64,000 bases of DNA from the NCBI RefSeq assembly GCF_921293095.1, contig NC_060253.1, positions 81,753,992-81,817,991 on the forward strand, given 5' to 3'. Numbering within the stretch: the stretch's first letter is position 1; each line of letters begins with the position of its first letter. The notes beneath the pieces are model-generated. The model saw nothing but the letters and a program-made list of their open reading frames with translations. It was not told where the DNA came from and did not search any database. Positions 2,797 through 61,814 of this stretch are shown piece by piece. This DNA comes from Ischnura elegans (taxonomy: Eukaryota; Arthropoda; Insecta; Odonata; Coenagrionidae). The position numbers and the translations under genes were made by a program.

Positions 2797-3811
2797 CCCT
2801 TTCGAGACGGCGGAGTATTCGTCTAAGCATGACTGCTGTACTAAGCCCCAAGAGACTCTTCTTTCTCATGGTACGGAGCATTTTTCGACCCCTCCCCGCT
2901 GGGACTCCACATTATCTCAGACTCCGAGAGTAGTTGTCCTCCCTCCTTTCTGGATTTACGACCATACCTGCGGCATTTGTTCGCGGTCAACTTATGCATT
3001 GCTAATATGTATTTAGCACATGGATAATTGTCGCTTGCACATAAACTGCAGATTTTGAATTCAATTCCTCATTTTCTTCTGAGCATTTTGAAATTTTAAA
3101 TGAAGTTCTAAGGTCAATATTAATGCATTTAAGCAACAATTTCCATGTTGATGTTTATACAGAACTCGAATTATAAGTTAATATTTGTCGTAGAATTTTG
3201 TTTAAAAATTGTAAACGCAGCTCAAAAGACAAAGAATTCAATTCTTAGTTTATATTTCTTGAGAAAAGAACAAATATTTATTTAAGTTGATGGTTTGAGG
3301 CGTTACTTTATGGAAGTTGCTCATGATGAATGAAAATTGTACTTTGTTTTTCCACATATATTTATTTACACACGACCGCGGTTTCTGCACCATCATCAGG
3401 CGAGGAGCTCGCCAGATGATGATGCAGTGCGTCAAAACTGCGGTCGCGTGTAAATAAATATACGTGGAAAAACAAAGTACAATTTTCATTCAACAAATAT
3501 TTATTTTGAAAACTGACTGGATAAACAATTGCATGACCGCGGTCCCTTACCGCTGAGAGCGGTAATAAAAGATGAGGGGTCAGGGTAACTGCTCCTGGAT
3601 TCCAAAGGTAAAGCCTAAACCCCACATTTTTGGGTCCCGAAACAAAGACGTCGTACACCCGCGACCGTCATAAAAGGAGGAGAGCTAGAATACGTTTAAT
3701 TACGGCTTTCGTTCTCTTGGTCAGGAAAATCTCAGACGGAAATATACGGCTTTCGTCTCCCGGGTCAAGAAAAGTCCAAGCGTATACTTACGTCTTTAGT
3801 AGGGAAAAGGG
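2797..3811 (+). mobile_element. piggyBac-like non-autonomous element, copy A, inside mariner
   Basis: Ends TTAACCCTTTCGAGAC and GAAAAGGGTAA; homologous over most of its length to 51990-53532 in opposite orientation, which has perfect TTAA flanks. No transposase. It carries a hairpin repeat at 3284-3491. Confidence 0.6.
3284..3491. repeat. Foldback hairpin with GAAAC-type core (H2)
   Basis: Arms of about 70 bp (3329-3402 and 3411-3490) around a GAGGAGCTC-type loop. The flanks carry a 15-bp direct duplication AACAAATATTTATTT (3269-3283 and 3492-3506), so it is an insertion. About 45 bases of tail lie on the left between duplication and hairpin. The left arm read on the minus strand has CCTGATGATGGTGCAGAAAC; the right arm on the plus strand has CAGATGATGATGCAGTGCG then TCAAAAC. 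Confidence 0.7.
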
Positions 3812-4675
3812 TAATTTTCACATCAATGAAAAGCTTACACTTTTGCCTATTTTTCAACGTAGTCTCCATTTTTTTCGACAAACTTTTAAAGACAGTGCTC
3901 CAGCTTTTCTATCCCCAAGTTGAAGAAGTCTCCCGCCAACCCGTTGAGGTGGTGTGTGACCTCTGCTCGGACTTCATCGTCGCTCTTGAAGTGTTTGCCA
4001 CCTAAGAGTTTTGTTTCCGGGATACAATGAAATACCCACGCCATCTCCGGTGATGATAGAGACCAACAAATTCTCCTTGTTGCCCCCCCCCCCTACAATT
4101 GTTGAAGAAATTTGTGAGCACAGTCAAGGCGTTGCTCCATGTGTCCGTCTGTCAGCATCCGGGGGACCCAGCAAGCACACATCTTGCGATAACCCAACGT
4201 TTCTGTTAAAGTTCTTTCAATTGTGCCATGGGAAGCTTCAGGAATGCGTTCAACAAGTTCACAAATAGTGACCCTTCGATCTTTAAGCAGCTCACTGTTG
4301 ATCTTCTGGACAATCAAAACCGGCGGTCTTCCACTCCGTTCTTCATTGTGAACTTCCGTGCGACCCTCAGCAAAAGCCCTGCAACATTTGCGGACATGCT
4401 GAACGGACATGCACTCTTCACTATAAAGTTCAGTCAGTTGCTAATGAATCTCCAATGGCGGTAACTTCCTTGCGAGGAAAAATCGGATTACTGCTCGATC
4501 ATCACTTTCATTGTTGACGGCTGCTAAGCCAATAATGAGCGACACAGTGAATCGCGGACTAGCGGACTCGAGAGTAGGGGAACCACTGCGCACGGCACTG
4601 TTGTGGGATTTAGCCTAGCACCTTTGCTCAACATTGTAGCTCATTGGGAACCTTACTTTTAGTACAACCCTCGTA

Positions 4676-27959: not shown

Positions 27960-28925
27960 AATTTTTCTACTGTAGTGTTCTGGTCCCAACAGTGCTGAAG
28001 CAAGAATAAGAAATGGGGTAAGACAAGGGTGTCCACTTTCCCCCATAATTTTTAATGTTCACATAGAGAAAGCCATGAATGAAATCAAGGAGATAGCCTT
28101 GGGTGTCAATATCCACGGAGATAAAATTAGTATGCTGCGATTTGCTGAAAACATAGCACTCATACCCGAGACAGAGAAGGATTTGAAGAAGACTTTGACA
28201 AATATGGAACGAACAATGGCCAGATATAAGCTGAAAATCAACAAAAAGAAGACTAAGATATTAGTATGCAGCAAAAGAGAGGAGGCTAAGGCAAGAATTA
28301 ACCTAGGAAAGCATCAGCTTGAAGAGGTGAAAGAGTTTTCTCACCTGGGGAGCCAAATTATCAACGAAGCAAGAAAGAAAGTCAGTAGAATAGCGCAGGG
28401 GAAGAGGGCTTTCTACAAAAAGAAGACTCTTCTTACAGCTGAGAATACAAGCATAGAAGTAAGGATACAATTCATCAGATGCAACATTTGCAGCATGTTT
28501 CTATGGAAGCGAGGCGTGGACGTCGACCGCTGATAGAAGAGAAGTTGAGAGTGGAAGCATTCGAAATGTGGTGCTACTGAAGAATGATGAAGACAAAATG
28601 GATTGACTATGTAAGTAATGGGGAGGTGCTAAGAAGAGTGGGAGAAAAGAGAAGTCTTATATAACCCTTAAGCAGAAGACGGGAGAACTTAGTTGGCCAC
28701 ATTTTTAGGCATGATGGCCAGACGAAGACAATCGTTGAAGGACAAGTAGAAGGGAAGAAGGGCAAGGGACAGCCCCGAATGAGTTACATAGGACAGGTTA
28801 TTGAGGATGCAAAAGAGATGTAATACATCGCTATGAAAAGGTTAGCGGATAGGAGAGGGGAATGGAGATCTGCGTCAAACCAATCTTAGGATTGCTGGCT
28901 AATGATGACAAAGAGAGTTCTGGTG
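27960..28925 (+). mobile_element. LINE reverse-transcriptase remnant, copy 2
   Basis: The plus frame reads RIRNGVRQGCPLSPIIFNVH, NEIKEIALGVNIHGDKISML, RFAENIALIPETEKDLKKTL, KLKINKKKTKILVCSK and EVKEFSHLGSQI, with a DKMD/GELSWPHF-type tail. The FADD catalytic motif reads FAEN, so the copy is inactive. Same family as copy 1 but independently truncated at its 5' side. Confidence 0.85.
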
Positions 28926-36800: not shown

Positions 36801-39800
36801 AATCTCCTTTCTTTGAATACATGTTCATCAGATAGACTATCCACAAGAAATTTTAAAAGAGTCGATTGAATCTACCGCGTAGTGCTCCTTCATCAGCATT
36901 CTTTGACGAATGCAGCACCGGGGCCTTCAACTCAAAAGCCACATGAAGCTGTCTTCACCTTATGTTTAAATCTCCCCTTCTAATCCCAACACTGATCCTT
37001 TGCTGTATAAACCTAATTGTGCTAACTCCCTTTTAAGTGAAGAGGGACAATCTTATCTTTCACTTCCTGAATTTGACTTCAATGATTATGTGAGGACTGA
37101 CAACACCAGTTAATTTCTGACAGTATTAATGGTAACATCCATTTTATTAAAAATAAACCTTCCAGTTTTCACAGTTAATGTGATACGAGGGCAGATCGGA
37201 AAGTAACGCACAATATTTTTTTTCCCAAAATTTTAATATGAACCGAAACCAACAAATCACAAATTAACTTACATCTGTGACCTACTTTTCTGCATTGCTA
37301 CAAATTTCATCAACATACATATTTCTCCCATTGTGATACCAGTTTCAATATGCCCTGTTCATAGAAGTACGTTTGTTGGGAGAATTGCTATTTGCGGACT
37401 GCTGATTTCACTTCTGCATCTGCTGTTAAGTGTTGGCCAGCCAGGAATTTTTTTCCTGGGGCCAAACCGATGAAAGTCAGATGGTGCCAGGTCAGGACTG
37501 TATGGTGTATGCTGGTCACCCAAATTTCGGTCGGAGGTGCTCCAGCTCTCCAAATCCAAATTTGTCATCATTCGCCAAATTAACCCCATTAGTTGTGAGC
37601 ATAATTTCACTAATACATCATGGTGCTATTTTAACCCGTCAACGCCCACGAGTGCCATATGGCACCCAGTGCAGTGCTGAGCCCATGCTTCTGCAATGCA
37701 CTTAATATGTGAATTTTTGCGTGCTTTTCGGTGCACATACGTAGTAGAAGATTTCCTCTATTATTCAGTCAGTTTGAATTGAGTTCATTGTGTTAAGCTC
37801 ATATGTATCATAGTTTATAAAAGTGAAAGATTTGTGATTTTGAAAAAAACTTTGGGTGCTGACGGGTTAATAATCAATAAGGTAATACAGTATAAGATCA
37901 ATAATCCAGGGGTTTAAGGTCTGTGTGGTGGCTAGAATGCAGGCTTTACACATCATGGGCCAGGGTTCTTGCAGTGGTGGCAGAGACTTTTCAGAGTTGG
38001 TGGGATCCCAGTTCAAATGCCCGGCAGATGGGATGTTTTGCTGTGATCCTCTTGGTGCCTTTCGTTAAGAGTTGGCTAATGCTGACACTGGATTTCTATC
38101 AACCCTTACCTCGTGGCACAAAGGACCTCAGCTGTTGGTAATAAAGGTGTGCATAAGTACCAGTCATACGTTGTCATCGTGTAAGAACAAGATTGTTAAC
38201 TATTGGTACTAAATTTAATTGAATAGGACAGTCTGACATGGGTTGGGAAGAGTCCTGGGTATTTAGTAAACTGTTCTACAGAATAGTTCCTACCTCGTAA
38301 AATACCTCATAATTGGTAAATTGATGTACAAATAGTGCACTGTAGCCTTTTGAATATGTCACAAGGTCAAAATAGCCATATAATGTCAATAAAAAACTAA
38401 AACAACACCAATTTTTATTTTAAATGCATCTTAGCAATAAAATACCTCCATTAATTTATATTTCTGACACCAATTATAAATTACCTGAGCACTAAAAATA
38501 TGTATTACAAATACAGGGGTGCCGACTTACAAAAAATATTGGGGGGGCCCAAACCGGGGACCTTGCCCCAATGAATTTAAAGTTTTAAAGCATTTTAGAA
38601 GAGTCTTACGATCAACATTAGAACCCTGATAACTCGAATCTCGATATCTGGACACTCCGGGGAAAATCGACAAGCCTTACACATTTTTTCCTCACATCTG
38701 TAACGAATTTTTGGGGGGGCTCGGGCCCCATGGACTCGGCGCCACTGTACAAATATAACACTTTTTGTTCACACCTATATGTGGAAAGGTCACCTGATGA
38801 AAATGAAGAGACTTCAAGGGGTTTCTCAAAGTTTCAGCAAAAATATTGAAGAGGTTTTTTGAATATCAATGATAACCTCAATGGAATCTTTCTAGAGAAA
38901 ATAAATTTGACACAAAGCTGAGTTGCCTACAGAATTCCCTGAGAATTAGAAAAGGATTCTAGAGCAAGTGAGGAAGAAAAAGGAATCCTCTTTCAATGCT
39001 ACAGTCACCATATTAAAGCGATGACAATGTCTCTATTGTTATGAACAGGTTTTCAACAGGAATTGTGGATGTTTCGCAACAGCCGAATTGGAGGGGATTA
39101 CTTCGTAGAGGTACTCTAGAAACTTGCTACAAGTTTTCTGTTTTGCCTTATCAAACGGTGTCATGATGAAACTACGAGGGGGTTTTTGAAAGGATCTGAG
39201 GTTTGGCAACATTCGGCTCAGAGGTCAGCGAGAGTTACTTAACCTCCTTAGTCCTAACCAGGGGTGTCATAATTGTTAAATGGTATTTTTATCAATTTTG
39301 CTGCCACAAAATTTCTGGTATACAAATTCGTACCCAAATTAAAAAAAATTGTTATTAAATGTAAATAACAACTTGTGAAGGCCTGGTTACACGATACATT
39401 AACACGTACGGGTTAATGTCTAAATGTATGAATGCCAAAATGCATCGTGTAACCACCCAACTTGTGTGAATGCATAAACGGAAAATAGAACCTGTTCTAA
39501 TTTGGTTCATGCATTTGTACATGTTCCGTTCCGGTCCACCAAAATCATTCACGCAAACGTACATTAACTTGTGCGTGTTAATGTACCGTGTAATCAGGCC
39601 TTAATAATATACACAGAGTAATATTTCATTTTTTAAAAAGAAAAAAAAGTGCGTTCTGGAATGCTAATTTTGCCATGACGTCACTGCTCCCAACAATATC
39701 TTTTGGTTGGTGCGAAGGCTTCCACGGTGCACTGGTAATGTAGGCTGCATTTTCCAGGTTTCACTGCGTTGTGGTTGTGTTGGAGACAAATTTTCTCCTG

Positions 39801-42800
39801 CATTCCAGCAGGCGTCTTTGATCACAGCAAAATATCCCATCTGCCGGACACGTGAACTGAGATCCCGCTAACTGTGAAAGTTTCTGCCACTGCCAGAACT
39901 TGAACCCTGGCCAATGGAGTGTTAAGCCAACACTGTAGCAACCACACCAACATTATCCACCAGGATTGTTGATCTTCTACTGTATTAACGTTTACAATAC
40001 GGTAGAAGATCAATAATCAGAATCAGGATACATATTGAACACAGTAATATCATACATCAACAGCTTTGCGAACCATCAGTCTCTCATACACTTTAGATTT
40101 CAGCACTGGAGGATAGTGCAGGTTTTACAGGTGTGTGAATGCACCATAGTTGCTACGATTGCTGGAACAACCGTAATCTGAGCAAGGCATAAGAAAATCA
40201 ACCTGGGACACATTTTTCAGGAATGCAAATTTATATTGCCCTTTTAGTGATGTGAACATCTATGGTGTTACTTTTGAGTACATAAGATTATCAGGTCTCA
40301 TTTTCGTGCCTTTAAAGATGTGTGCAGCATAGATTTCTGTGGAAAAACTAAAGAAAAGTTTGTTTTGTACCAGAGGTTTGGAAGGTAACAAATAGAGTTG
40401 TGGATTTCATGTTTTGGCAATGAAGAGGGCAGCACATAGCTAGTATTTTGTGCCAGCTGCTACTGGTTTCAGCTCTTAGTTTCCTTAATGTACCTTTTAT
40501 TCTTAGCAAAGAAATCAGTGTACATATGTTATCAGAAATGAAGTGAAATTCAACGTTAACTCTTGGTGGAGTTAATTACCCTTTAACCTCTAGCTGACGG
40601 ATTTAAATGCCAAATGGTCACCTCTTACTGTCTTTGATTTAGTGGGTCATTATGGGCATGCTAAGCAGGGAGTGGACCTTTATTTCTATACCTGATGAGC
40701 ACACTGGGCATTTAAAAGTTAATGATATAACTTACCTTTGTGATTGTAATAATTAGTGATGGGCATCGTGCGAGTGAGTCAGTTCAAATGTGCGACTCAG
40801 CAGATAGAGCTGTGATGCGAGAGAGTCTTATTTGGTGAGTCATGACTCCCTCCCCTCTGGAAACGACTCCCTCAGCGCACACTGTGCGTGTTGGAGTCCT
40901 GAGCAGTAGAAGTTGGACTCGGTCGTACTCCCTCAGCACGGAATGTGCGCATTGGAGTCGTGTACGGTGAGAGTCGGACTCCATGCGCAAACGATTCCTT
41001 CCACAAACATGTTCCGTGTCTTGCTCATCACATGTTTAGCTGATCAAAGTGAGCATATGGCACTTTTCGAGGGTAGCCCACTGTTCACCATGCTGCTTGA
41101 AATATTCTCCTGATTCATTTTCTGGGTATTGCTCTAAAGAATCTTTTAGGACCCTAATCGCAATTCTCTCTCCTGCATGCTCCATGCATCGTGAAGGAAA
41201 AGTGATTGAAGATGCTCACGTAAAAGTTTTTAGCAACAGCAAATTTATGAAAATAATACACAGACAAGAGACATGAGACAAAAATGAAAATTTGTTCTAA
41301 CACAAACAGCTGAGATTAATCGAGGAAATTAACTATGAATTGTTAACATGATCATGTAGTTTCAGAGAGAGTATTTTGTTGTAACAGAATTTTTTAAATT
41401 GTCGTCATCTCTAAGCTCAGAAGACGGAATACTATTTCCGTCTCCCATGAAAGGTATAACGTATGGGCTGAATTTGTTCCTCAGTTACATCACCTGTAAA
41501 ACATTGTGACTATGCAATACGTGATTGATTTGTAATCAAATTTTCAAATTGTGATCTAGGAAATGTTTCATTTTAAATGTTCGTTCAGAAATACCCCTCT
41601 CACCACCTTCCCCTCTTCCTCTTTCTTCCACCCCTCTTCCCCCTCCCCTCATCCCTGAAACGCTTTGTTGAGTTGGATTGTGTGAGCGGTGAGGCAGCTC
41701 CTCAAAAAGTGTCGTTTATGCCATCTCTAGTAATAATTAACAAATCTTGAAGCCAGCAGTGGCTCTAGCATGTGTCAAATGGGCGAGCTAGATAAATAAA
41801 ATGGTTGGGCCTAACCTAGGGTTAATATGGATAAGTATGAAGGATGAAATGTTATTTTAAACATTTATTTATTGACCTTACACGAATGGCACCCCTTTCC
41901 TGACATACCATGCTACAAAAGCAAATCATGCCTCAGGCCTTAATGTAAGGGTGCATTCATTTTATATTCATTTGAAAAATGGCAAAATTGATCCTACTGA
42001 GAAGAAAGTGAAAAACTTCTAAATATGTATTAATCAATATGGACAAAACAGAATCATTTAGCCAATTAACTGAGCGGTTCTCCTTATACCTATAACTGAA
42101 CACAATTTATTTTATTTTATAAAATAAAATTTTACTATGGACTTTGATTCTAAAATTTGTCCATATAATTTGGGTAGGCCCTGGCCCCTGATGCCACCAC
42201 TGCTTGAAGCAATGAAGGGGCCTAGAAGGGAGGTTTTGTTACATTTGATATTTTCACAAAAGGTTCAGGATGCATCTTGTTCACTGTTGATTTCTTTCTA
42301 TTAATATCCATTAGGTCAGGAAGAGTCTTATCCCCCACCAGGTACTGCAGGCTATGGTTCACACCCAGGGGGGTATCCCCCACATCCAGGAGTATATCCC
42401 CCGCAGCCAGGAGTATATCCCCCACAGCCTGGAGTTTACCCTCCGCAGACAGGAATGCACCCTCCACAGCCAGGAATGTACCCTCCACAGCCAGGAGTGT
42501 ACCCTCCACAGCCAGGAGTGTACCCTCCACAGCCAGGAATGTATCATCCACAGGCAGGAGTATACCCACCTCCGTATCCTGGAGCTGAACCTATTGGAGC
42601 GATGAGTGGTCTAACTCCATCATCGGAGGATGATAATGAAGATCCTTTCAAATATGATTCTGAAAACTTTCAATTCAGTTCAAAAAGTATTCGACATGCA
42701 TTTATCAGGTTAGTGTTGAAACTAAATCAAATTCCCTGAGATAAGTAAGGTAGACAGATGAGACAGAAATTGATCCTTGAGGGAACTAATTTTAGCCAAA

Positions 42801-45800
42801 TTTGGAAATTTGTTTTAATTTGGTGACAAAACAAAAATCATAGTTTTTTTATACATGCTATCATTTAGAAGGTACGTATTGTCATGTTGCACTAATGAAA
42901 TTTTACAAAAGCATCTTTGCATTACGAATTTTGAAATGAATATGTACAGAGTTCAAGTAGTCTTTCAGGCCAGCCATTCATAACCCTCTTAAATTCACAA
43001 GATGGAATAGCTGCCACTACCTTGAAAGAAACATTCTTCCTCAAAATAAATCATAGCCAATGGCACATTTGTAAATCCTTCAAGAGAAAGCCTGGACAAA
43101 GCATCTGCATAAGCAATATCAGTACCCTTCTTATAATGAATCTTGTAATGCTAAACTAACAATAACAATGCTAATCTTTATAACCTAACATTTGCAACTA
43201 AGGGTATACCCTTTCGAGGGTTGAAAATAGGCTGCAAAGGCTGATGGTCCGTGACTAAGGTAAAAGTTCTAACAGCCAGGAATTTGTGAAAGTATTTAAC
43301 CCCATATACACAAGCTATTGCTTCCCGATGTAGATCACTGTAATTCTCTTCTGCACTTGAAAGTGTTGTGGAAACAAAAGCAATAGGGTGTCCCACCCCA
43401 TCAATGACGTGCGCAAGAGTAGTGTCTACCAGGGTGCCTCCTTGTGCCTTTTTTTATAGGAGCGAATTGTGATACCCAGCAAAAGTTGCGTACTCAAATA
43501 GGTTTACAAATAAGATTTATGTTTCAAAATCGGTTAATATCTTCTGTTTGCCATTTTGCCTTGAAATTTCCAAATTTTTAACAAAAACTGTAAATAAATT
43601 AAGTTTGATTTGAGCGAGCACTCATTTTTTGCAATGGAGTATAACTTTGGACTTAAATTGATATTTTAGATTGAATACCTCGAATACCTTGAATTTTAAT
43701 TATCGAGAAAATGACTTTACTGTGTGCCTGAAAGCAGTTTTTTGGTGCTGGCAACCCGCAACACAACCTCATTTTTACGTAATGCATGCAATAAATGATG
43801 TGAATTTAGTAATTTTTTTCAGTCAAAAATGTGGAAATTAGTTATGAAAATTTGAAGAGTAGTCACTAAGATGAGAGCTCTTTTTTCTCTTTTTCTCTTT
43901 TATGCCATCAACGACTAAGTATATGTACTTTATGTTTGTGGAAAATGTCTCTGAAGTTTCTTTATAGGTACAAGCCATTTGGAAAAAAAACATCTATTCC
44001 TGCAGTCACACAGCCAATTTAATTCAACTCATCTCCTGCTGCATAATGAATGCAACAGGGCAAAGTAAATCCTGAAGAGTATTATAGTAAATAATAGAAT
44101 GTCTTGTTGAAGTGTTTTACTGAGGAGGCGACGAAACTATTTCATATAGCCTTCTGAAAATGTGCCAGCTTTCCCATATGAGTCTTATCCTAGTAAAAAA
44201 AAAAAGGGTCCTATTCTTCAGAACCAGTTTCTCATGGATCAGAGAAAGTCCAAGAATTGACCTAATTGGAACTGTTGACATCCCTGTGCCACAAAAATGC
44301 AAGAAATGGCTGAACGTTATCTATTATAATATATATTGAATAAATAATTGGCTTGAATATGAATAATTTGAATTCACAGTTTCCCTGTTGTCATTTTTGA
44401 ATGACAGTCAAAACGTTGAGGATAACCAAGATAACAATGAGAAAATCATACATATCTAGTGTTGTAGCTATGATGTGGCATTTACCAAAACAAGAGAAAA
44501 GAAGTCCAAGTCAAATTAGACTTAACCAAAAATGAGTGCTCGCTCAAACGAAACTTAAATTATTTACATTTTCATTAAAAATTTAGAAATTTCAAGGCAA
44601 AATGGCTAACAGAAGATATGAACCAATTTTGAAAAAAAATCATATTTGTAATAGCCATTTGGGTATGAAACTTTTGCTTGGTATAACGATTCACTCCTTA
44701 AAAAATGGCCAAATGAGGAACCTTAGTGCCTACCCCATGGGCACTACTATCTCATGTAGGCACCAATGACTTAAGGGGATCATTTAAAACCAAGAGTTTT
44801 TTTCTGAAATGGCATTTTCGGCCTCCTCAAAAGCTTTCCGACATTTAAATGTCTAGCGCTAGTAAACATTTTTATGTGTAAGAGCATACAGAGGCTCTAA
44901 CATTGTTGAGCTCATAGGCACCGATTGGTGATAAAAATTCAGTATGCCAATGATAGACTTCAATTCAGTCACATTGCTTGGCACTCAATCCTATTTAAAA
45001 GCATTCGACTTTTCAGGTGATGGACCTTGCCCATTTACACGGAAACCCAAAACATATAATGATCCTAAAAATAGTCTGCACTTTGATGGATTTATCTTTT
45101 CATTAAATTAATTTAATTTCGCCAATACCTTTTCTAACATCAAAGAACACTCTTGCCTAGCCTATTATGACATTGTCAAGGTAGACTTGAACCCCTGGTA
45201 CGCACTTCAAAAGAGAATCCATGACAGATTGGAAAATTGATGGCACACCTTACATGGCAAAACAAAGCCTATTTGATGTAAATAATCCAACATGTGTGTT
45301 TATGGTTAACAATTCTTTACTTTCATCACGTACCAGCAACTGTAAATGTGCATTTGTGAGGTCTAGTTCACTAAAGTAGTTACAATTCACCAAGGCTGAG
45401 TATCATCAAATCTTTGCAAGGGATAATGTCCATAACCACATGCTTTTTTATTGTAACCTTCAGGTCTGCACAGATTCTCATGTTCCCATTATTTCTTCCT
45501 CCACAAACTATGGGAGAAGCCCGTTTACTATGCCTGACCCTTGGAATGATTTTTTTGTGCCTTCAAGGGTTCTAGTTCATTTTCTACAGGTTATCTAAGT
45601 GCATATTGTACACAATATGCTCTATGAATAATCGCACAGGCGACTTCTTTAAGCATAATTGACGTTTTAAAATCCTTGAGTCACTTTGGCCAGGGACTTT
45701 TGGACACTTTTTCCGAAAATACTGGAAATCAATAACATCATCATTTGAAAACAAACTTGTTTGGTTAACCGAGCCAATGTCCAACCTTAGTAATGACTTC

Positions 45801-51800: not shown

Positions 51801-54800
51801 ACCTTTTTTTGCCAGAAAGATCAACTTTTTATGTGAAAAAATATTGAGCTTTAACAAACAAATTTTTATCCAGAGTCGATGTATACAGGATGGAGGAAAA
51901 TTATGTCTCGAAATTTTCACCCTGGATAGAGATGCCATCAGGAACCAATATTACCAATGATGTTCAGCCAGAAAACGCACCATTTTTAACCTTTTCTGTA
52001 CCAAAGATGAAAATATGCATCTGGACGTTTCTTGACCCGCGAGACGAAAGCAGCAAATTTTCGTCGGAGATTTTCCTACGCAGGTGAACAAATGCCGAAA
52101 ATATACGTTTCCTGGCTCTCCCCCTTGACGGTCGCAGGTGTGCAATGTCTTTGTTTTGCGAGCCAACACAGTGGGGCTTAGGCTTTACCCTCGAAATCCA
52201 GGAGCAGGTACCCGGGCCCCTCATCTTATATTACCCCTCTTAGTGGTAAGGGACTACGGTCATACAATTGTTTATCCAGTCATTTTGTGAAATAAATATT
52301 TGTTCCTTTCTCAAAAAACATAGACTAAGAATTGAATTGGCGGTGAATTCTTCTCGGGTTTCCATCCGGGTGAGCTCCATCTCCATCGCTGCCGACGTTT
52401 CGATAGAATCCTTTTCTATCGACATCAGGGCCGTTGACGTCATCGTCACCGTCATATCGTCATCGGCCCTGATGACGATAGAAAAGGATTCTATCGAAAC
52501 GTCGGCAGCGATGGAGATGGAGCTCACCCGGATGGAAACCCGAGAAGAATTCACCGCCATCATATGCCGGGAAAATGTGAAATCTTACATAAGAATTGAA
52601 TTATTTGTATTTTGAGCTGTGTTTACAATTTTAAACAAAATCCTACGATAAATATTTACTTATATATATATATATTGATTTCAGTATAAACATCAACATG
52701 GAAATTGTTGCTGCATTAAATGCGTTAATATTGATGTTAGAGCTTCGTTCAAAATTTTACAATTCGCAGAATAAAACTAGGAATTCAATTCAAAGTCTGC
52801 AATTTACATTCAAGCAACAATTATCCATATAGCTAATTCATATAAACAAAGCATGATTGACTGCGAACCAATGCTGCTGGTAGGGTTATAATCCCCAAAA
52901 GGAGGGAGCCCAACTACCCTCGGAGTCGGAGACAATGCGGATTCCCCACTAGGAAGGGTCGAATGTGGTTGGTGGTGAGAGTGTATGATTACTCTGGACG
53001 GCAAAAAATATTTTTTTCCCGAGCACTGATACCATTCCTGCTGACTCTCATGTAAAATGACCTCCTGAATCCGAATATGACATCCGTTTCCCTCCATCAC
53101 CCACCATTTTCAGGGGGAAACCCCCTCTGATTTTCATCACTTTTGCAATAATTTGGAGGAATGAAAAGGATTATTTTAGCATTAAAATTTTTCCAGAGGT
53201 TTAGAGGGGTGAAAAATCCTAAAAAAATAATATTTATGGTAAATATGTACATTTGGGGGGACTTAGTCTCCGTAAATAGTGTTAAAACACAGCCCCCTGA
53301 AAATGGTGGGTGATGGATAGAAACGGATTTCATATTCGAATTTAGGAGGTCATTTTACATGAGAATCAGCAGGAATGGTGTCAGGGCCGATTTTCATGCC
53401 GTCCAGTGTTATCAGCGAGACCCTTCTTCACTAATGTCCATCAAAAATGCTTCATACGGAGGGGACGGAAGAGTCTTTTGGGGCTCAGTACAACAGGCAT
53501 GCTAAGGCGAGAACTCTACTGTCTCGAATGGGTTAAACAACGGATAATTTTAATACAAGTAATTGTTTAACATGAATTTTATAAATGTAATGTAATTACA
53601 AGTAACGAGCATGATGCGCCCGCTCCCAGCGGGCTTCCCCCGCTCTTTTCAACGCAGGTCCACAGAGAGATAGGCGCGTTCTAATTTAAAAATGTAGAAA
53701 GAAGGCTGGGTCTTATGTACAAATTTAATTACGTATCAACAGGAGACTTGAATGTGTAATCAGCCGCATTTTGATAAAAGTTATTTAAAGAATGGGAGAT
53801 ATTGTTGCAAATGAACAAATGTATCAGTTTGTGTGCCGATAACGTCAGGAATATTTCCGGTTTACCTCTCGAACATTCCACCATAACCAAGATACGAAAG
53901 CAAAGAAAAGAGGGTGCCAGAGAAAAAGAGACAGAAAATGGTTCGCTATAGACTGAGTACGTGTTGAGTCCGAGACCTTTCTGTGTTAACTTGAAATAAT
54001 ATGTTGAAAGCGCGTTATATTGCAAAAAATATAATAGTATGTATCTGAAACTAAATTGGTATTAATTAAATATTCTGAAATAATACAAGTAATTGTTTGA
54101 TATCCAGGAAAAATTATAATGGAATACCACAAAGTAAATCAAGAGTTAGTGAATTTAGATGCATAAATTATTTGCCACGGGCAACGCTACTCAGGCCGCA
54201 TAATTAAAGAAGTCGTAGAGATCCACCTAAATCCCAAAAATTTCAATCGCAATACCGGCTTCAATCTTAGCAATACATCGAGACCATTATCAGCTGCATA
54301 AAAAACATAAGGGAAGCACACAAAGAATTTAAAAAGACCTTCAGCCAATCAGATGCCACCTGAGCCCTATTGTTGAGCAGGCTAAACGACGGTTGATCGG
54401 GTTCAGTGTGAAATTGGACTTTCATTGATTAAAGGCCGTTTTACACGGGGCACGGAATTGCGCAGGTTAGAGCTGCATTAATTTCTAAAATGGCGTGGAA
54501 TGCATGAAAGAAATTTGAACAGGGGCTATTTTGTGGTCTCGCATCCACGCATTCTCGCGTGTGTTCTAGCAATTCACCGCTTTACACGACGCAATTTTGA
54601 TTGCGCCTTCACACGTACGTCAGATTGCGAAATTCCGTGTACTGTGTAAAACGGCCTTAACACATGCCTGAAAAATGGGAGGCAGGTCATCTTCCAAAAT
54701 GTCGGCATGTATGAGTGATTTAACGTGGTGGGAAACCCGAGAAGAATTCATCAACAGATAATTTGATCCAAGTGCTCTGATTGGCTACGAGTTTGCCCAA

Positions 54801-60800: not shown

Positions 60801-61814
60801 TGTTTTAAAATTTTTATCTATTGCAGTAATCACATAAGATTATCCTGGAATTTTGTGAAATTTCCCTGAAAAACTGGAATGATAGATCAATTTTTTTTGC
60901 TTTGATTGGCTGAACACTCTTGAGAGGGCAAACTCTCTGTCAATCAGAGAATTTGGCTCAAATTTTTTGTAGTTTCAAAATTGTATGTTTTCATCCTGAA
61001 CATCATCAGTTATCCAGGGTTAAAATTCTTTGACATAATTTTTATCCTCCCTGTATATTTAAAAAAATCTGTTTTTCATGCCTTTAATCTCTGCCTCTAC
61101 TTATGCTTAAATGAATTGAAATTGTTGAATTTTTCTACAGGCTGTCTTTTAAAATGATTTCCTTTCTATTTGATTTACCCTAGGAAAGTATATGCTATTC
61201 TCATGAGCCAGTTGCTGGTGACTGTGGGCATCATTGCATTCTTCATGTATCATCAGCCCACCAAAATGTTTGTTCAACATAATCCAGGCGTTTATTATGC
61301 TGCCTTCGGTGTATATTTTGGGGCTGCTATTGCTATCTCATGCTGTGAAAGTGTTCGCCGCAAATCTCCTGGCAATTACATATGCTTGCTGATTTTGACA
61401 TTGGCTATGAGCTACATGACGGGAGCTATAAGCTCGTTCTATGATACAGAAGCAGTGCTAATGGCTGCTGGGATTGCCACTGTTGTTTGTTTGTCACTGA
61501 GTATATTTGCCTTTCAAACCAAGTGGGATTTCACAATGCTTAGTGGCGTATTGTTTGTGGCTGCGGTGATTCTTTTAGTCTTTGGTATTGTTTGTATTTT
61601 TGTTCGAGTAAAAATCATGATACTGGTGTATAGTTGTCTTGGAGTTCTCTTATTTTCGGTTTATCTTGTGTACGACACTCAGCGTATGATGGGTGGCAAC
61701 CACAAGTTTACCATTTCACCAGAGGAGTATATATTTGCTGCTCTTTGTCTTTATATAGACATAGTGAATATTTTCCTTTACATTCTGCAAATAATTGGAA
61801 TGTCCAGAAAGTGA
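33832..61814 (+). CDS. Nmda1: TMBIM/lifeguard protein, GRINA/Nmda1-type
   Basis: Members of the BAX-inhibitor-1/TMBIM family are seven-pass membrane proteins of Golgi, ER and plasma membrane that limit calcium-driven and Fas-type cell death. Exons 33832-33889, 42315-42708 and 61184-61814 join in phase to 360 residues. An in-frame TAG eight codons upstream supports the start. Residues 1-145 are a Pro/Gly/Tyr-rich cytosolic arm with about ten GVYPPQP-type heptads, as in GRINA/Lfg1. Then SIRHAFIRKVYAILMSQLL opens the TMBIM domain (about 145-360), which holds seven hydrophobic segments, YDTQRMMGG, SPEEYIFAALCLYIDIVNIF and the terminal LYILQIIGMSRK. The exon 2/3 junction falls inside FI-R-KVY, a conserved string. 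Introns are 8.4 and 18.5 kb and full of transposons. The symbol follows the fly homologue; the vertebrate paralogue cannot be chosen. Confidence 0.95.
33977..35976. mobile_element. 2.0 kb TIR element with AGAATAGCA and TTGCAAC subterminal arrays
   Basis: Perfect 16-bp inverted ends GGCTGCTATTCTGGAT/ATCCAGAATAGCAGCC, flanked by ATA on both sides. About 280 bp at the left and 140 bp at the right are packed with AGAATAGCAT, GTTGCAA and their inverses. The AT-rich core has no coding frame. It starts 87 bp after TMBIM exon 1. Superfamily not assigned (a 3-bp duplication suggests Harbinger-like, but ATA is not TWA). Confidence 0.7.
36252..36329 (+). repeat. 78-bp block, copy 1 (GTAGGCTGTATTTTTC...ACAGGCGTC)
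   Basis: Close match to 39740-39816; both lie directly upstream of a copy of the SINE described at 36370. Confidence 0.7.
36370..36640 (+). repeat. tRNA-like SINE, copy 1
   Basis: Shares with 37882 and 39818 the head TAATACAGTAGAAGATCAAT, the B-box-like GGGTTCAAGTTC and the body GGGATGTTTTGCTGTGATCC TCTTGGTGCCTTTCGTTA. Confidence 0.7.
37186..37630 (-). mobile_element. mariner 3' remnant
   Basis: The left end CGAGGGCAGATCGGAAAGTA is a mariner terminus after TA. The minus strand encodes HTPYSPDLAPSDFHRFGP, the motif before the third catalytic Asp of mariner, then a KKFLAGQH-like stretch. The transposase 5' part is absent; DNA ends at a TTAA MITE. Confidence 0.8.
37635..37866. mobile_element. 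piggyBac-like MITE, 232 bp
   Basis: CCCGTCAACGCCCACGAGTG...TTTGGGTGCTGACGGG flanked by TTAA on both sides, the piggyBac target. Confidence 0.8.
37882..38142 (+). repeat. tRNA-like SINE, copy 2
   Basis: Same head (TAATACAGTATAAGATCAAT), B-box region and GGGATGTTTTGCTGTGATCC body as copy 1. Confidence 0.7.
38514..38747. mobile_element. 234-bp hAT MITE
   Basis: CAGGGGTGCCGACTTAC...GACTCGGCGCCACTG between perfect 8-bp duplications TACAAATA (38506-38513 and 38748-38755). Confidence 0.85.
38750..39375. other. TMBIM intron 1 DNA
   Basis: No gene or repeat recognised. Confidence 0.4.
39376..39602. mobile_element. Harbinger-like MITE, 227 bp
   Basis: AGGCCTGGTTACACGATACA...GTACCGTGTAATCAGGCCT; flanks TGA and TAA approximate a TWA duplication. 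Internal ACGTACATTAAC words are repeated in both orientations. Confidence 0.65.
39740..39816 (+). repeat. 78-bp block, copy 2
   Basis: GTAGGCTGCATTTTCCAGG...CAGCAGGCGTC, about 85-90% like 36252-36329 by eye. Confidence 0.7.
39818..39990 (-). repeat. tRNA-like SINE, copy 3, truncated
   Basis: Minus-strand copy of the same family: head TAATACAGTAGAAGATCAAC, then GGTTCAAGTTCTGGCAGTGG, ending at GGGATATTTTGCTGTGATC. Confidence 0.7.
40754..41729. mobile_element. hAT non-autonomous element, 976 bp
   Basis: TAGTGATGGGCATCG...TGCCATCTCTA (hAT ends of the TAGAGATGGGCA type) between perfect 8-bp duplications GTAATAAT (40746-40753 and 41730-41737). The left 240 bp repeat GACTCC(CTCAGC) and GCGCA words. 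No coding frame. Confidence 0.85.
41738..42314. other. End of TMBIM intron 1
   Basis: AT-rich; no repeat recognised. Confidence 0.4.
42315..42708 (+). CDS. Nmda1: TMBIM coding exon 2, heptad-repeat arm
   Basis: Acceptor CATTAG, donor GTTAGT. It codes GQEESYPPPGTAGYG, the run of seven-residue repeats (consensus GVYPPQP), an acidic stretch (SSEDDNEDPFKYDSENF) and SIRHAFI, the juxtamembrane start of the TMBIM domain. Confidence 0.95.
42355..42575 (+). repeat. 21-bp coding tandem repeat in TMBIM exon 2
   Basis: About ten units of 21 bases coding Gly-Val/Met-Tyr-Pro-Pro-Gln-Pro; neighbouring units differ by only one or two bases, which suggests recent unit turnover. Confidence 0.9.
42960..46040 (-). 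mobile_element. Ty3/gypsy LTR retrotransposon fossil
   Basis: Minus-strand pol remains: the end of the protease (LLGRDWL, about 45830) and its downstream linker, reverse transcriptase traces (about 44700-45560), RNase H (43178-43396, FVSTTLSSAEENYSDLHREA) and the DALSRLSL linker after it. No LTRs, gag or integrase were seen. It is broken, with many breaks, and old. A separate TIR element is inserted in it (43458-44700). It lies antisense in TMBIM intron 2. Confidence 0.8.
43458..44700. mobile_element. DNA element with about 175-bp inverted repeats, inside the gypsy fossil
   Basis: The ends TAGGAGCGAATTGTGATACC and GGTATAACGATTCACTCCTTA continue as inverted homology to the word GAGCGAGCACTCATTTTT at 43613 and its inverse at 44530. 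The core (43640-44510) has no recognised transposase. Class not assigned. Confidence 0.75.
46113..46467. mobile_element. pogo/Tigger-like MITE, 355 bp
   Basis: CAGTGAAACCTTGGTTAGTG...TTCAACGTTCTACTG with TA on both sides. Confidence 0.65.
46610..46700. repeat. AT-rich palindrome with ACCTAATTATATATT words
   Basis: CCTAATTATATATTAAATATATATAATTAGG-type palindrome followed by a second copy of GTGTTCCAGTTTTGGAA and TATATAATTAGG. Confidence 0.6.
46701..47234. other. TMBIM intron 2 DNA
   Basis: No gene or repeat recognised. Confidence 0.4.
47366..48918. mobile_element. hAT-like element, inner copy of the same family
   Basis: TAGAGGTCCCTGAATTTCGC...TTTCACGGACCTCTA between 8-bp duplications CTATTGAG and CTAATGAG (one mismatch), which lie within the outer copy. 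Its interior (47490-48110) is repeated, diverged, at 48920-49560 as part of the outer copy. Confidence 0.85.
49600..50352. mobile_element. pogo/Tigger-like element, 753 bp
   Basis: CAGTGAGTCCTTGTTTAACG...CGTTGAACGAGGACTCACTG with TA on both sides; ACGTTAATCG-type subterminal words. Confidence 0.8.
51638..51989. other. TMBIM intron 2 DNA between two elements
   Basis: No gene recognised. Confidence 0.4.
52339..52589. repeat. Foldback hairpin with CTGATGA-stem-GAAAC core (H5)
   Basis: Arms 52339 to about 52447 and about 52452 to 52558, near-perfect. A 31-base tail follows on the right. Duplication TAAGAATTGAATT (13 bp) at 52326-52338 and 52590-52602. The right arm on the plus strand reads CTGATGACGATAGAA, then AAGGATTCTATCGAAAC and GTCGGCAGCG; the minus strand of the left arm reads CTGATGTCGATAGAA with the same continuation. 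Confidence 0.8.
53010..53395. repeat. Foldback MITE with arms of about 100 bp inside copy B
   Basis: ACCATTCCTGCTGACTCTCA TGTAAAATGACCTCC...CACCCACCATTTTCAGGGGG and its inverse; absent at the matching place in copy A, so inserted after the copies split. Confidence 0.7.
53537..54436. other. TMBIM intron 2 DNA
   Basis: No gene or repeat recognised. Confidence 0.4.
54437..54656. mobile_element. Harbinger-like MITE, about 220 bp
   Basis: AGGCCGTTTTACACGGGGCA...GTGTACTGTGTAAAACGGCCT with TAA on both sides. Internal TTGCG/CGCAA words. Confidence 0.75.
54725..54765 (+). repeat. Fragment of the 52.4 kb hairpin arm
   Basis: GGGAAACCCGAGAAGAATTC ATCA matches the right-arm end of the hairpin at 52535-52558. 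Confidence 0.55.
54766..55530. other. TMBIM intron 2 DNA
   Basis: The 134-codon open frame here (54801-55205) has no recognised motif and is probably chance. Confidence 0.35.
56019..58063. mobile_element. pogo/Tigger-like element, first insert
   Basis: CAGGCGGTCCCCGACTTTCG...CTTTCG-type GTACGAAAGTCGAGGACCGC CTG with TA on both sides. Subterminal GTACGAAAGTCGA words occur six or more times. It carries a solo-LTR-like insert (56144-57224). Confidence 0.8.
56144..57224. mobile_element. Probable solo LTR fossil
   Basis: Starts TGTGACATACTGACC, ends GTTCCGCCACA (TG...CA), with a 4-bp duplication ATAC on both sides; a TATAAA at 56414 could be its promoter. No internal retroelement DNA. Family not assigned. 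Confidence 0.5.
58066..59385. mobile_element. pogo/Tigger-like element, second insert
   Basis: CAGGCATCCCCCAAGTTACG...CGTAACTCGGGGGATGCCTG; TA at 58064-58065 is shared with the element on its left, and TA follows at 59386. Subterminal TTACGTAAGTCGA words. The 132-codon frame at 58785 is unassigned. Confidence 0.8.
59488..60639. other. TMBIM intron 2 DNA
   Basis: No gene or repeat recognised. Confidence 0.4.
60640..60785 (+). repeat. Probable LINE/SINE 3' tail
   Basis: CAAATTTCATAGGAAATGGT CCAGCCGTTTCGGAGGAGTT ... GAGAATTTTATATAAAAGA resembles the 3' ends of arthropod RTE-type retroposons (known style: AAATCGGTTCAGCCGTTT followed by a TATA-rich tail). Confidence 0.5.
61184..61814 (+). CDS. 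Nmda1: TMBIM coding exon 3, all membrane segments
   Basis: Acceptor TTTACCCTAG restores the split Arg codon (AG+G). It codes KVYAILMSQLLVTVGIIAFF to the IIGMSRK end and TGA, the whole seven-segment domain in one exon. Confidence 0.96.

What the first reader, a model, noticed from the sequence alone, without database searches (positions are those of the whole stretch)
52339..52589. Hairpin insert whose arms carry a hammerhead-ribozyme-like core
Both arms (one per strand) read CTGATG(A/T), an 8-bp self-pairing stem CGATAGAA/TTCTATCG, then GAAAC, the order of the hammerhead catalytic core (CUGANGA - stem II - GAAAC). The unit sits between 13-bp target duplications and has a one-sided 31-base tail. 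Hammerheads are known in Penelope-like elements and retrozymes, but here two cores face each other as one long foldback with its own insertion hallmarks. That cores are active is inference; pairing next to A9/G12 is not ideal.
Basis: partly seen in the sequence, partly recalled or inferred. Interest (0 to 1): 0.75.

Follow-up and report, generated by a model that had tools for sequence, protein, structure and literature searches.

The report
Body-less Penelope-type hairpin insertions
Two short hairpin-shaped inserts in a eukaryotic genome look like footprints of Penelope-type jumping genes whose enzyme copied the start of its RNA onto both cut ends of the target, which would explain a puzzling feature of that transposon class.

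Summary
Window 52339-52589 (E1) is a foldback (101-nt arms, 2 mismatches, 18-nt centre) with a 31-nt right-hand tail and identical 13-bp flanks. A paralogous repeat (2884-3814, minus strand) lacks E1 and holds the 13 bp once, so E1 is an insertion. That copy carries a second, unreported insert (E2, 3284-3491, minus strand), unrelated in sequence but of the same design: foldback, one-sided 44-nt tail, identical 15-bp flanks, a CTGATGA...GAAAC core, and an empty counterpart site beside E1. The design fits Penelope-like elements (PLEs): inverted pseudo-LTRs, optional one-sided tail, minimal hammerhead motif at the ORF start, AT-rich targets, reverse transcription starting 111-118 nt into the ORF (anole PLE; 118 and 113 nt here from an inferred ATG). 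I read E1 and E2 as body-less PLE insertions in which both cut target strands primed reverse transcription, one from the inner and one from the outer start site. Ribozyme activity is not supported: no Rfam hammerhead match, the hammerhead fold is not the favoured one, one E1 core lacks A9. No parent element was seen (no genome held; a crude scan of the window found no PLE signature), so membership is provisional.

The parts
52326..52338 (.). E1 left target-site duplication, TAAGAATTGAATT
   Evidence: identical to 52590-52602; single copy at the paralogous empty site 3235-3247
52339..52439 (-). E1 left arm: antisense copy of the putative PLE start region, without the tail
   Evidence: 98% complementary to right arm; 2 differences in 101
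52397..52428 (-). E1 left hammerhead-like core; position 9 is T, not A
52440..52457 (.). E1 centre (18 nt), junction of the two arms
52458..52558 (+). E1 right arm: sense copy of the putative PLE start region
52469..52503 (+). E1 right hammerhead-like core CUGAUGA-(C)-stem II-GAAAC plus GUC, helix III without a loop
   Evidence: no Rfam match
52472..52589 (+). Open frame from the ATG inside the core to the end of the insert (118 nt); putative start of a PLE ORF
   Evidence: no Pfam match; start codon inferred
52559..52589 (+). E1 one-sided tail, 31 nt, begins ATCAT; between the inferred inner (87 nt) and outer (118 nt) RT start sites
52590..52602 (.). E1 right target-site duplication
3492..3506 (.). 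E2 target-site duplication (left in E2's own orientation), AAATAAATATTTGTT
   Evidence: single copy at 52290-52304
3284..3491 (-). E2: second foldback insert of the same design, 208 nt
   Evidence: arms 61 nt, 93% complementary by the repeat tool, whose arms run a few bases into flank and tail; 58 nt; reading
3413..3438 (+). E2 left core (CAGATGA...AAAC), 7 nt longer between the core strands than the right arm
3374..3399 (-). E2 right core CUGAUGA-UGGUGCA-GAAAC-CGCG-GUC
3284..3327 (-). E2 one-sided tail, 44 nt, also begins ATCAT
3269..3283 (.). E2 target-site duplication (right in E2's own orientation)
51986..52963 (+). Host repeat carrying E1; its E2-equivalent site (52290-52304) is empty
   Evidence: matches 2884-3814 minus in three pieces of 80%, 80% and 92% identity, aligned
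2884..3814 (-). Paralogous host repeat carrying E2; its E1-equivalent site (3235-3247) is empty

Best explanation
E1 and E2 are two independent, body-less insertions made by Penelope-like retrotransposon machinery acting on RNAs of two different PLE families. The endonuclease makes a staggered break 13 or 15 bp apart in AT-rich DNA. Both exposed DNA 3' ends then prime reverse transcription inside the first ~120 nt of the PLE open reading frame: one from the outer start site (118 nt in E1, 113 in E2), the other from the inner site (87 and 69 nt). Both cDNAs run a short way upstream, past the hammerhead core and its would-be cleavage site, so the template was not ribozyme-cleaved. The two cDNA ends are then joined near small palindromes. 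The product is a head-to-head foldback with the tail on one side only, flanked by duplicated target. Shown: insertion, duplications, arms, one-sided tails, core letters, recurrence in two unrelated inserts. Inferred: PLE identity, the start codon, two-ended priming, the joining step. The hammerhead motif is carried along and need not be active.
For: Reciprocal paralogous empty sites for both inserts. Unrelated sequences but the same anatomy, both tails starting ATCAT. Tails of 31 and 44 nt; published PLE tails are 30-40 bp (PMC11167929) and 31 bp in A. vaga Pen2a, optionally on one of the inverted pLTRs (PMC3846280). Outer ends 118 and 113 nt from the ATG in the core, against RT starts 111-118 nt into the ORF of the anole PLE, whose protein cleaves and extends both target strands, with no difference in start site between strands. 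Duplications are 25 of 28 A/T, window 62%; PLEs prefer AT-rich DNA. PLE hammerheads usually lack helix III (PMC6155905), as in E1 (GAAAC-GUC). A permissive hammerhead descriptor, written after both cores were known, finds only E1-right and E2-right in 64 kb; 100 shuffles give mean 0.15, maximum 1. Head-to-head is the most frequent inverted arrangement reported for A. vaga PLEs.
Against: No parent element was seen: no genome is held, a crude motif scan of the window found no PLE-type signature, and Pfam was run on only 10 of 168 frames of 70 residues or more, where the one RVT_1 fragment (27976-28530) looks LINE-type by a recalled motif. Only two inserts. The short frames match no Pfam family. 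E2's tail (44 nt) is longer than the published 30-40. E2's arms differ by a 7-nt indel and five substitutions, and the frame has a stop in its left arm. No Rfam hammerhead hit; the hammerhead folds are not favoured. The right-hand parts fold only modestly better than shuffles (z -2.05 for E1, -1.16 for E2). The anole start codon lies at the start of stem II, about 4 nt further on than the ATG used here. Palindromes at the junctions are equally expected under self-priming.
Confidence: 0.66

Rival explanations
1. PLE origin, but the inverted arm arises by self-priming (snap-back) of one cDNA or on an antisense template, not by priming from both target strands.
For: Proposed for A. vaga PLEs because palindromes lie at inverted junctions (PMC3846280 Discussion). 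E2's centre is GGCGAG-CTC-CTCGCC and E1's contains TGACGTCA (by reading).
Against: A snap-back copy of a tailed cDNA should copy the tail or stop at varying places. In both inserts the second arm stops exactly before a tail that begins ATCAT, and the anole PLE has two start sites bounding the tail. E2's arms differ by a 7-nt indel, easier from two templates, though later mutation is possible.
Confidence: 0.2
2. One reading: a new element in its own right, a foldback carrying two active hammerhead ribozymes (retrozyme-like), moving as processed RNA.
For: Core letters in catalytic order in both arms of E1; metazoan retrozyme RNAs are about 170-400 nt and PLEs are named as candidates for moving them (PMC7229834 passages).
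Against: E1 and E2 are single foldbacks, not tandem direct repeats. Their ends do not coincide with the would-be cleavage site (coordinates). No Rfam match, competing folds stronger, left E1 core lacks A9.
Confidence: 0.06
3. A foldback or MITE-type DNA transposon.
For: Long inverted arms and target duplications. A MITE-like foldback lies nearby at 52994-53406.
Against: Ends are not symmetrical (one-sided tails), duplication lengths differ (13 and 15), and the two inserts share no terminal repeats.
Confidence: 0.05
4. A hairpin RNA gene (microRNA or siRNA precursor) that happens to lie in a repeat.
For: Weak miRNA-family matches on both strands at E1.
Against: All are below the gathering scores (best 54.1 against 104) and several families hit both strands, as a long hairpin would; the unit is an insertion.
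Confidence: 0.02

Closest known systems
Penelope-like elements with inverted pLTRs and tail (A. vaga Pen2a; PMC3846280, passages and Discussion seen)
   Same: Head-to-head inverted terminal pieces, 31-bp optional tail on one of them, short target duplication, start of the ORF included in the pLTR
   Different: There a long ORF and direct pLTRs lie between; here nothing but the two start-region arms remains. Target duplications in the passages seen are 8-10 bp; here 13 and 15
Anole PLE PAc / Poseidon (PMC11167929, parts 1 and 2 of 4 and passages seen)
   Same: Hammerhead motif at the ORF start; two internal RT start sites bounding a tail; main start 111-118 nt into the ORF; both target strands cut and extended; AT-rich targets
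   Different: Sequence not compared (not available here); the PAc start codon is at the start of stem II, while here the ATG lies within CUGAUGA
Metazoan retrozymes (PMC7229834, passages seen)
   Same: Small, non-coding, hammerhead-like motif; possibly dependent on PLE enzymes
   Different: Retrozymes occur as tandem repeats with canonical type I hammerheads; these are single foldbacks with minimal cores
L1 twin-primed insertions (recalled, not looked up)
   Same: Second target strand used as a primer, giving an inversion
   Different: In L1 the inverted part is not a second copy of the same region; here both arms copy the same region

Membership tests
Penelope-like elements | Element encodes RT and GIY-YIG endonuclease (in the parent copy) | not testable with these tools
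   E1 and E2 are too short to encode them; no own genome held. In the window a crude motif scan found no PLE-type signature; Pfam on 10 of 168 frames found one RVT_1 fragment, judged LINE-type by a recalled motif
Penelope-like elements | Inverted pLTR ends, head-to-head, with optional one-sided tail of about 30-40 nt | tested here: met
   E1 tail 31 nt, E2 tail 44 nt (longer than published), both one-sided
Penelope-like elements | Target-site duplication on insertion | tested here: met
   13 and 15 bp, each single at the paralogous empty site
Penelope-like elements | AT-rich target | tested here: met
   25 of 28 duplicated bases A/T; window 62%
Penelope-like elements | cDNA starts inside the ORF start, about 111-118 nt from the start codon | tested here: inconclusive
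   118 and 113 nt from the ATG in the core; the start codon is inferred and the yardstick is one species
Penelope-like elements | Minimal hammerhead motif at the ORF start, often without helix III | tested here: inconclusive
   Letters and order met in E1-right and E2-right; E1-left and E2-left each carry a core change; no Rfam match; fold not favoured
Hammerhead ribozyme | Match to Rfam hammerhead models | tested here: not met
   None at gathering over the window; none up to E = 10 on E1 and E2
Hammerhead ribozyme | Three helices around the core form stably | tested here: not met
   E1-right -15.5 or -18.0 against best fold -22.4; E2-right +5.1 against -13.0 kcal/mol; tertiary contacts and proteins not modelled
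Hammerhead ribozyme | Self-cleavage | not testable with these tools
   needs an RNA cleavage assay
Retrozymes | Direct tandem repeat units with hammerheads | tested here: not met
   single foldback units
MITE / foldback DNA transposon | Symmetrical terminal inverted repeats and fixed duplication length | tested here: not met
   one-sided tails; duplications 13 and 15 bp; no shared ends

The most novel reading that the evidence does not exclude
Such hairpins are a distinct, strand-symmetrical class of non-autonomous elements moved by PLE enzymes. Each strand carries an RT start region and a hammerhead-like core, so a transcript from either strand could serve as template. When transcribed from introns, the foldback would also make double-stranded RNA against the 5' end of active PLEs, so that the footprint helps to silence its parent.
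Probability: 0.1. Interest if true: 0.65.

Novelty: new variant of a known kind. Interest (0 to 1): 0.42.

Why it matters
How Penelope-like elements come to have head-to-head inverted ends is unsettled: the 2013 A. vaga paper favoured self-priming, and in the main text of the 2024 biochemistry paper a word search found 'inverted' only for the 3' inverted dT block. Body-less hairpins are the simplest form of the problem. If both target strands prime from the two known start sites, the inverted arms, the one-sided tail and the target duplication all follow from one step. They also point to templates not cleaved by the hammerhead, in line with the in vitro result that hammerhead mutants still insert.

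Tried and rejected
Relatives outside the window. Hammerhead-PLE pattern in viral contigs: 15 stretches; I printed the context of each and judged them chance by eye, not by a test. E1 arm/tail junction pattern in viral contigs: 5 stretches, 0 of 5 with CTGANGA or GAAAC in the stretch looked at. Two genome-contig scans for E1-like patterns gave 0. The phage collection gave no match for E1 (E2 not searched there). No E2 pattern was scanned in any collection. None of these collections is meant to hold animal genomes, so these misses say little.

Other ideas. The CTGATG...GAAAC match at 60972-61009 was not followed up. A 20-nt match of E1 at 54731-54750 and a 15-nt one at 38947-38961 have no such foldback around them. 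The long foldback at 53026-53384 has no such core and no one-sided tail by reading. The first energy value for the E2-right hammerhead was an artefact of a forbidden 2-nt loop and was replaced.

Literature. Listings seen (titles and starts of abstracts): 5 of 5; 2 of 2; 20 of 71; 20 of 29; 20 of 21; 20 of 388, mostly off topic; 13 of 13; 7 of 7. I saw none there on body-less PLE hairpins or on inverted pLTRs from priming of both strands. Passages seen: PMC6155905, PMC7229834, PMC12910113, PMC8969392 (notes inverted pLTRs and short 3' extensions in PLEs), PMC3846280 (34, Discussion in 46), PMC11167929 (parts 1-2 of 4 in 28 and 30, passages in 56). The library is open-licence PMC only; the 2021 MBE paper on PLE structure is not held, and the 2014 paper on PLE hammerheads (recalled) was not looked for by id or seen.

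Full report
CHECK. The insert at 52339-52589 (E1) is as described: two arms of 101-102 nt, 98% complementary, an 18-nt centre, a 31-nt tail on the right only and identical 13-bp flanks. The two cores read CTGATG(T or A), an 8-bp stem with a 5-nt loop, and AAAC after the closing G. The window is eukaryotic by its genes: Bax1-I, galactosyltransferase and ING domains among the 10 frames given to Pfam. No genome is held for it.

EMPTY SITES AND A SECOND INSERT. A self-comparison shows that 51986-52963 matches 2884-3814 on the other strand in three pieces (80%, 80% and 92% identity). Aligned with E1 and one duplication left out, the paralogue runs straight through the E1 site; TAAGAATTGAATT occurs twice in the E1-bearing copy and once in the other. 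The paralogue in turn carries a 208-nt insert (E2, 3284-3491, minus strand) between two copies of AAATAAATATTTGTT, which occurs once in the E1-bearing copy, at 52290-52304. E2 is a foldback (61-nt arms, 93%, by the repeat tool; by reading, pairing resumes in the centre around GGCGAG-CTC-CTCGCC) with a 44-nt tail on one side. E1 and E2 share no general similarity by alignment, yet both tails begin ATCAT, both right arms contain CTGATGA...GAAAC, and both sit in the same orientation in the host repeat.

HAMMERHEAD. E1-right can be written as CUGAUGA, one extra C, a 7-bp stem II, GAAAC, then GUC at once, i.e. helix III without a loop, with a 3-bp helix I. E2-right has CUGAUGA, UGGUGCA, GAAAC, CGCG, GUC. 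A permissive descriptor, written with these in mind, finds just these two in the window; 15 of 100 shuffled windows have one, none has two. Against activity: no Rfam hammerhead match; E1's hammerhead fold scores -15.5 or -18.0 against -22.4 for the best fold of the same piece; E2-right scores +5.1 (the first value was an artefact of a forbidden loop) against -13.0; E1-left has U at position 9 and E2-left has A for the U of CUGAUGA. Folded whole, the right-hand parts are only modestly more stable than shuffles: z -2.05, 4 of 200 shuffles as good, for E1 with its flank; z -1.16, 29 of 200, for E2. The anole PLE hammerhead cleaves only with protein present, so a weak fold does not exclude the family.

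PENELOPE ANATOMY. In the anole PLE (parts 1 and 2 of 4 of PMC11167929) the protein cuts and extends both target strands, reverse transcription starts inside the template most often 111-118 nt into the ORF, the 30-40 bp tail corresponds to the sequence between two start sites, and the hammerhead lies across the ORF start. In A. vaga (passages and Discussion of PMC3846280) PLEs have inverted pLTRs with an optional 31-bp tail on one, 8-10 bp duplications in the cases quoted, most often head-to-head, with palindromes at the junction. PLE hammerheads usually lack helix III (passages of PMC6155905). Here the outer ends lie 118 nt (E1) and 113 nt (E2) from the ATG inside the core, and the inner ends at 87 and 69 nt; the right-hand frames are open to the end of the insert, while E2's left arm has a stop in that frame. 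Counted from stem II, where the anole ORF starts, the outer ends are about 114 and 109 nt away (from the coordinates).

MECHANISM. The economical reading is that each 3' end of a staggered break primed its own cDNA, one from the outer and one from the inner start site, and the two short cDNAs were joined. This gives the inverted arms, the one-sided tail and the duplication together. Both cDNAs pass the would-be GUC cleavage site, so the templates were uncleaved. In the anole assay the two strands showed no difference in start site, so one inner and one outer start per insert is a matter of chance in this model. Self-priming remains possible, but does not by itself explain why the second arm stops exactly at the tail boundary in both inserts. 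Two inserts cannot settle it. E2's arms differ by a 7-nt indel between the core strands and five substitutions; this could mean two templates or later mutation.

LIMITS. The parent elements were not seen. A crude motif scan found two loose GIY-YIG-like matches, one inside the Bax1-I frame and one in an 81-residue frame without other support, and no YVDD-type RT motif. Pfam was run on 10 of the 168 frames of 70 residues or more; it found one RVT_1 fragment at 27976-28530, which I take for LINE-type from its RQGCPLSP motif, recalled and not tested. The 39- and 37-residue frames of E1 and E2 match nothing in Pfam. Membership in the PLEs is therefore provisional and rests on anatomy.

Noticed in passing
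window 52994-53406: Another long foldback (arms 53026-53117 / 53293-53384, 92 nt) with outer ends CTGGACGGCA...TGCCGTCCAG; MITE-like, without such a core or one-sided tail by reading.
   Followed up: partly
window 42305-42736 and 61158-61811 (+): A Pro-rich YPPQ-repeat frame (no Pfam hit) and a Bax1-I frame. If they are exons of one lifeguard-type gene (recalled resemblance), E1 lies in its intron in sense orientation.
   Followed up: no
window 39378-39602 and 54432-54658: Two foldbacks beginning AAGGCC and carrying TTACACG near the end, MITE-like by eye.
   Followed up: no
window 4096-4440 (-), 43181-43453 (-), 27976-28530 (+): Transposon remnants: a mariner-like frame (by eye; no Pfam hit), an RT-type RNase H (PF17917) and a reverse transcriptase fragment (PF00078).
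   Followed up: no
window 52389-52508: E1 gives miRNA-family scores on both strands, all below gathering; a long hairpin may do so by itself.
   Followed up: partly
window 42360-42567: 21/42/63-bp tandem repeat coding for YPPQPG(V/M)-type units.
   Followed up: no
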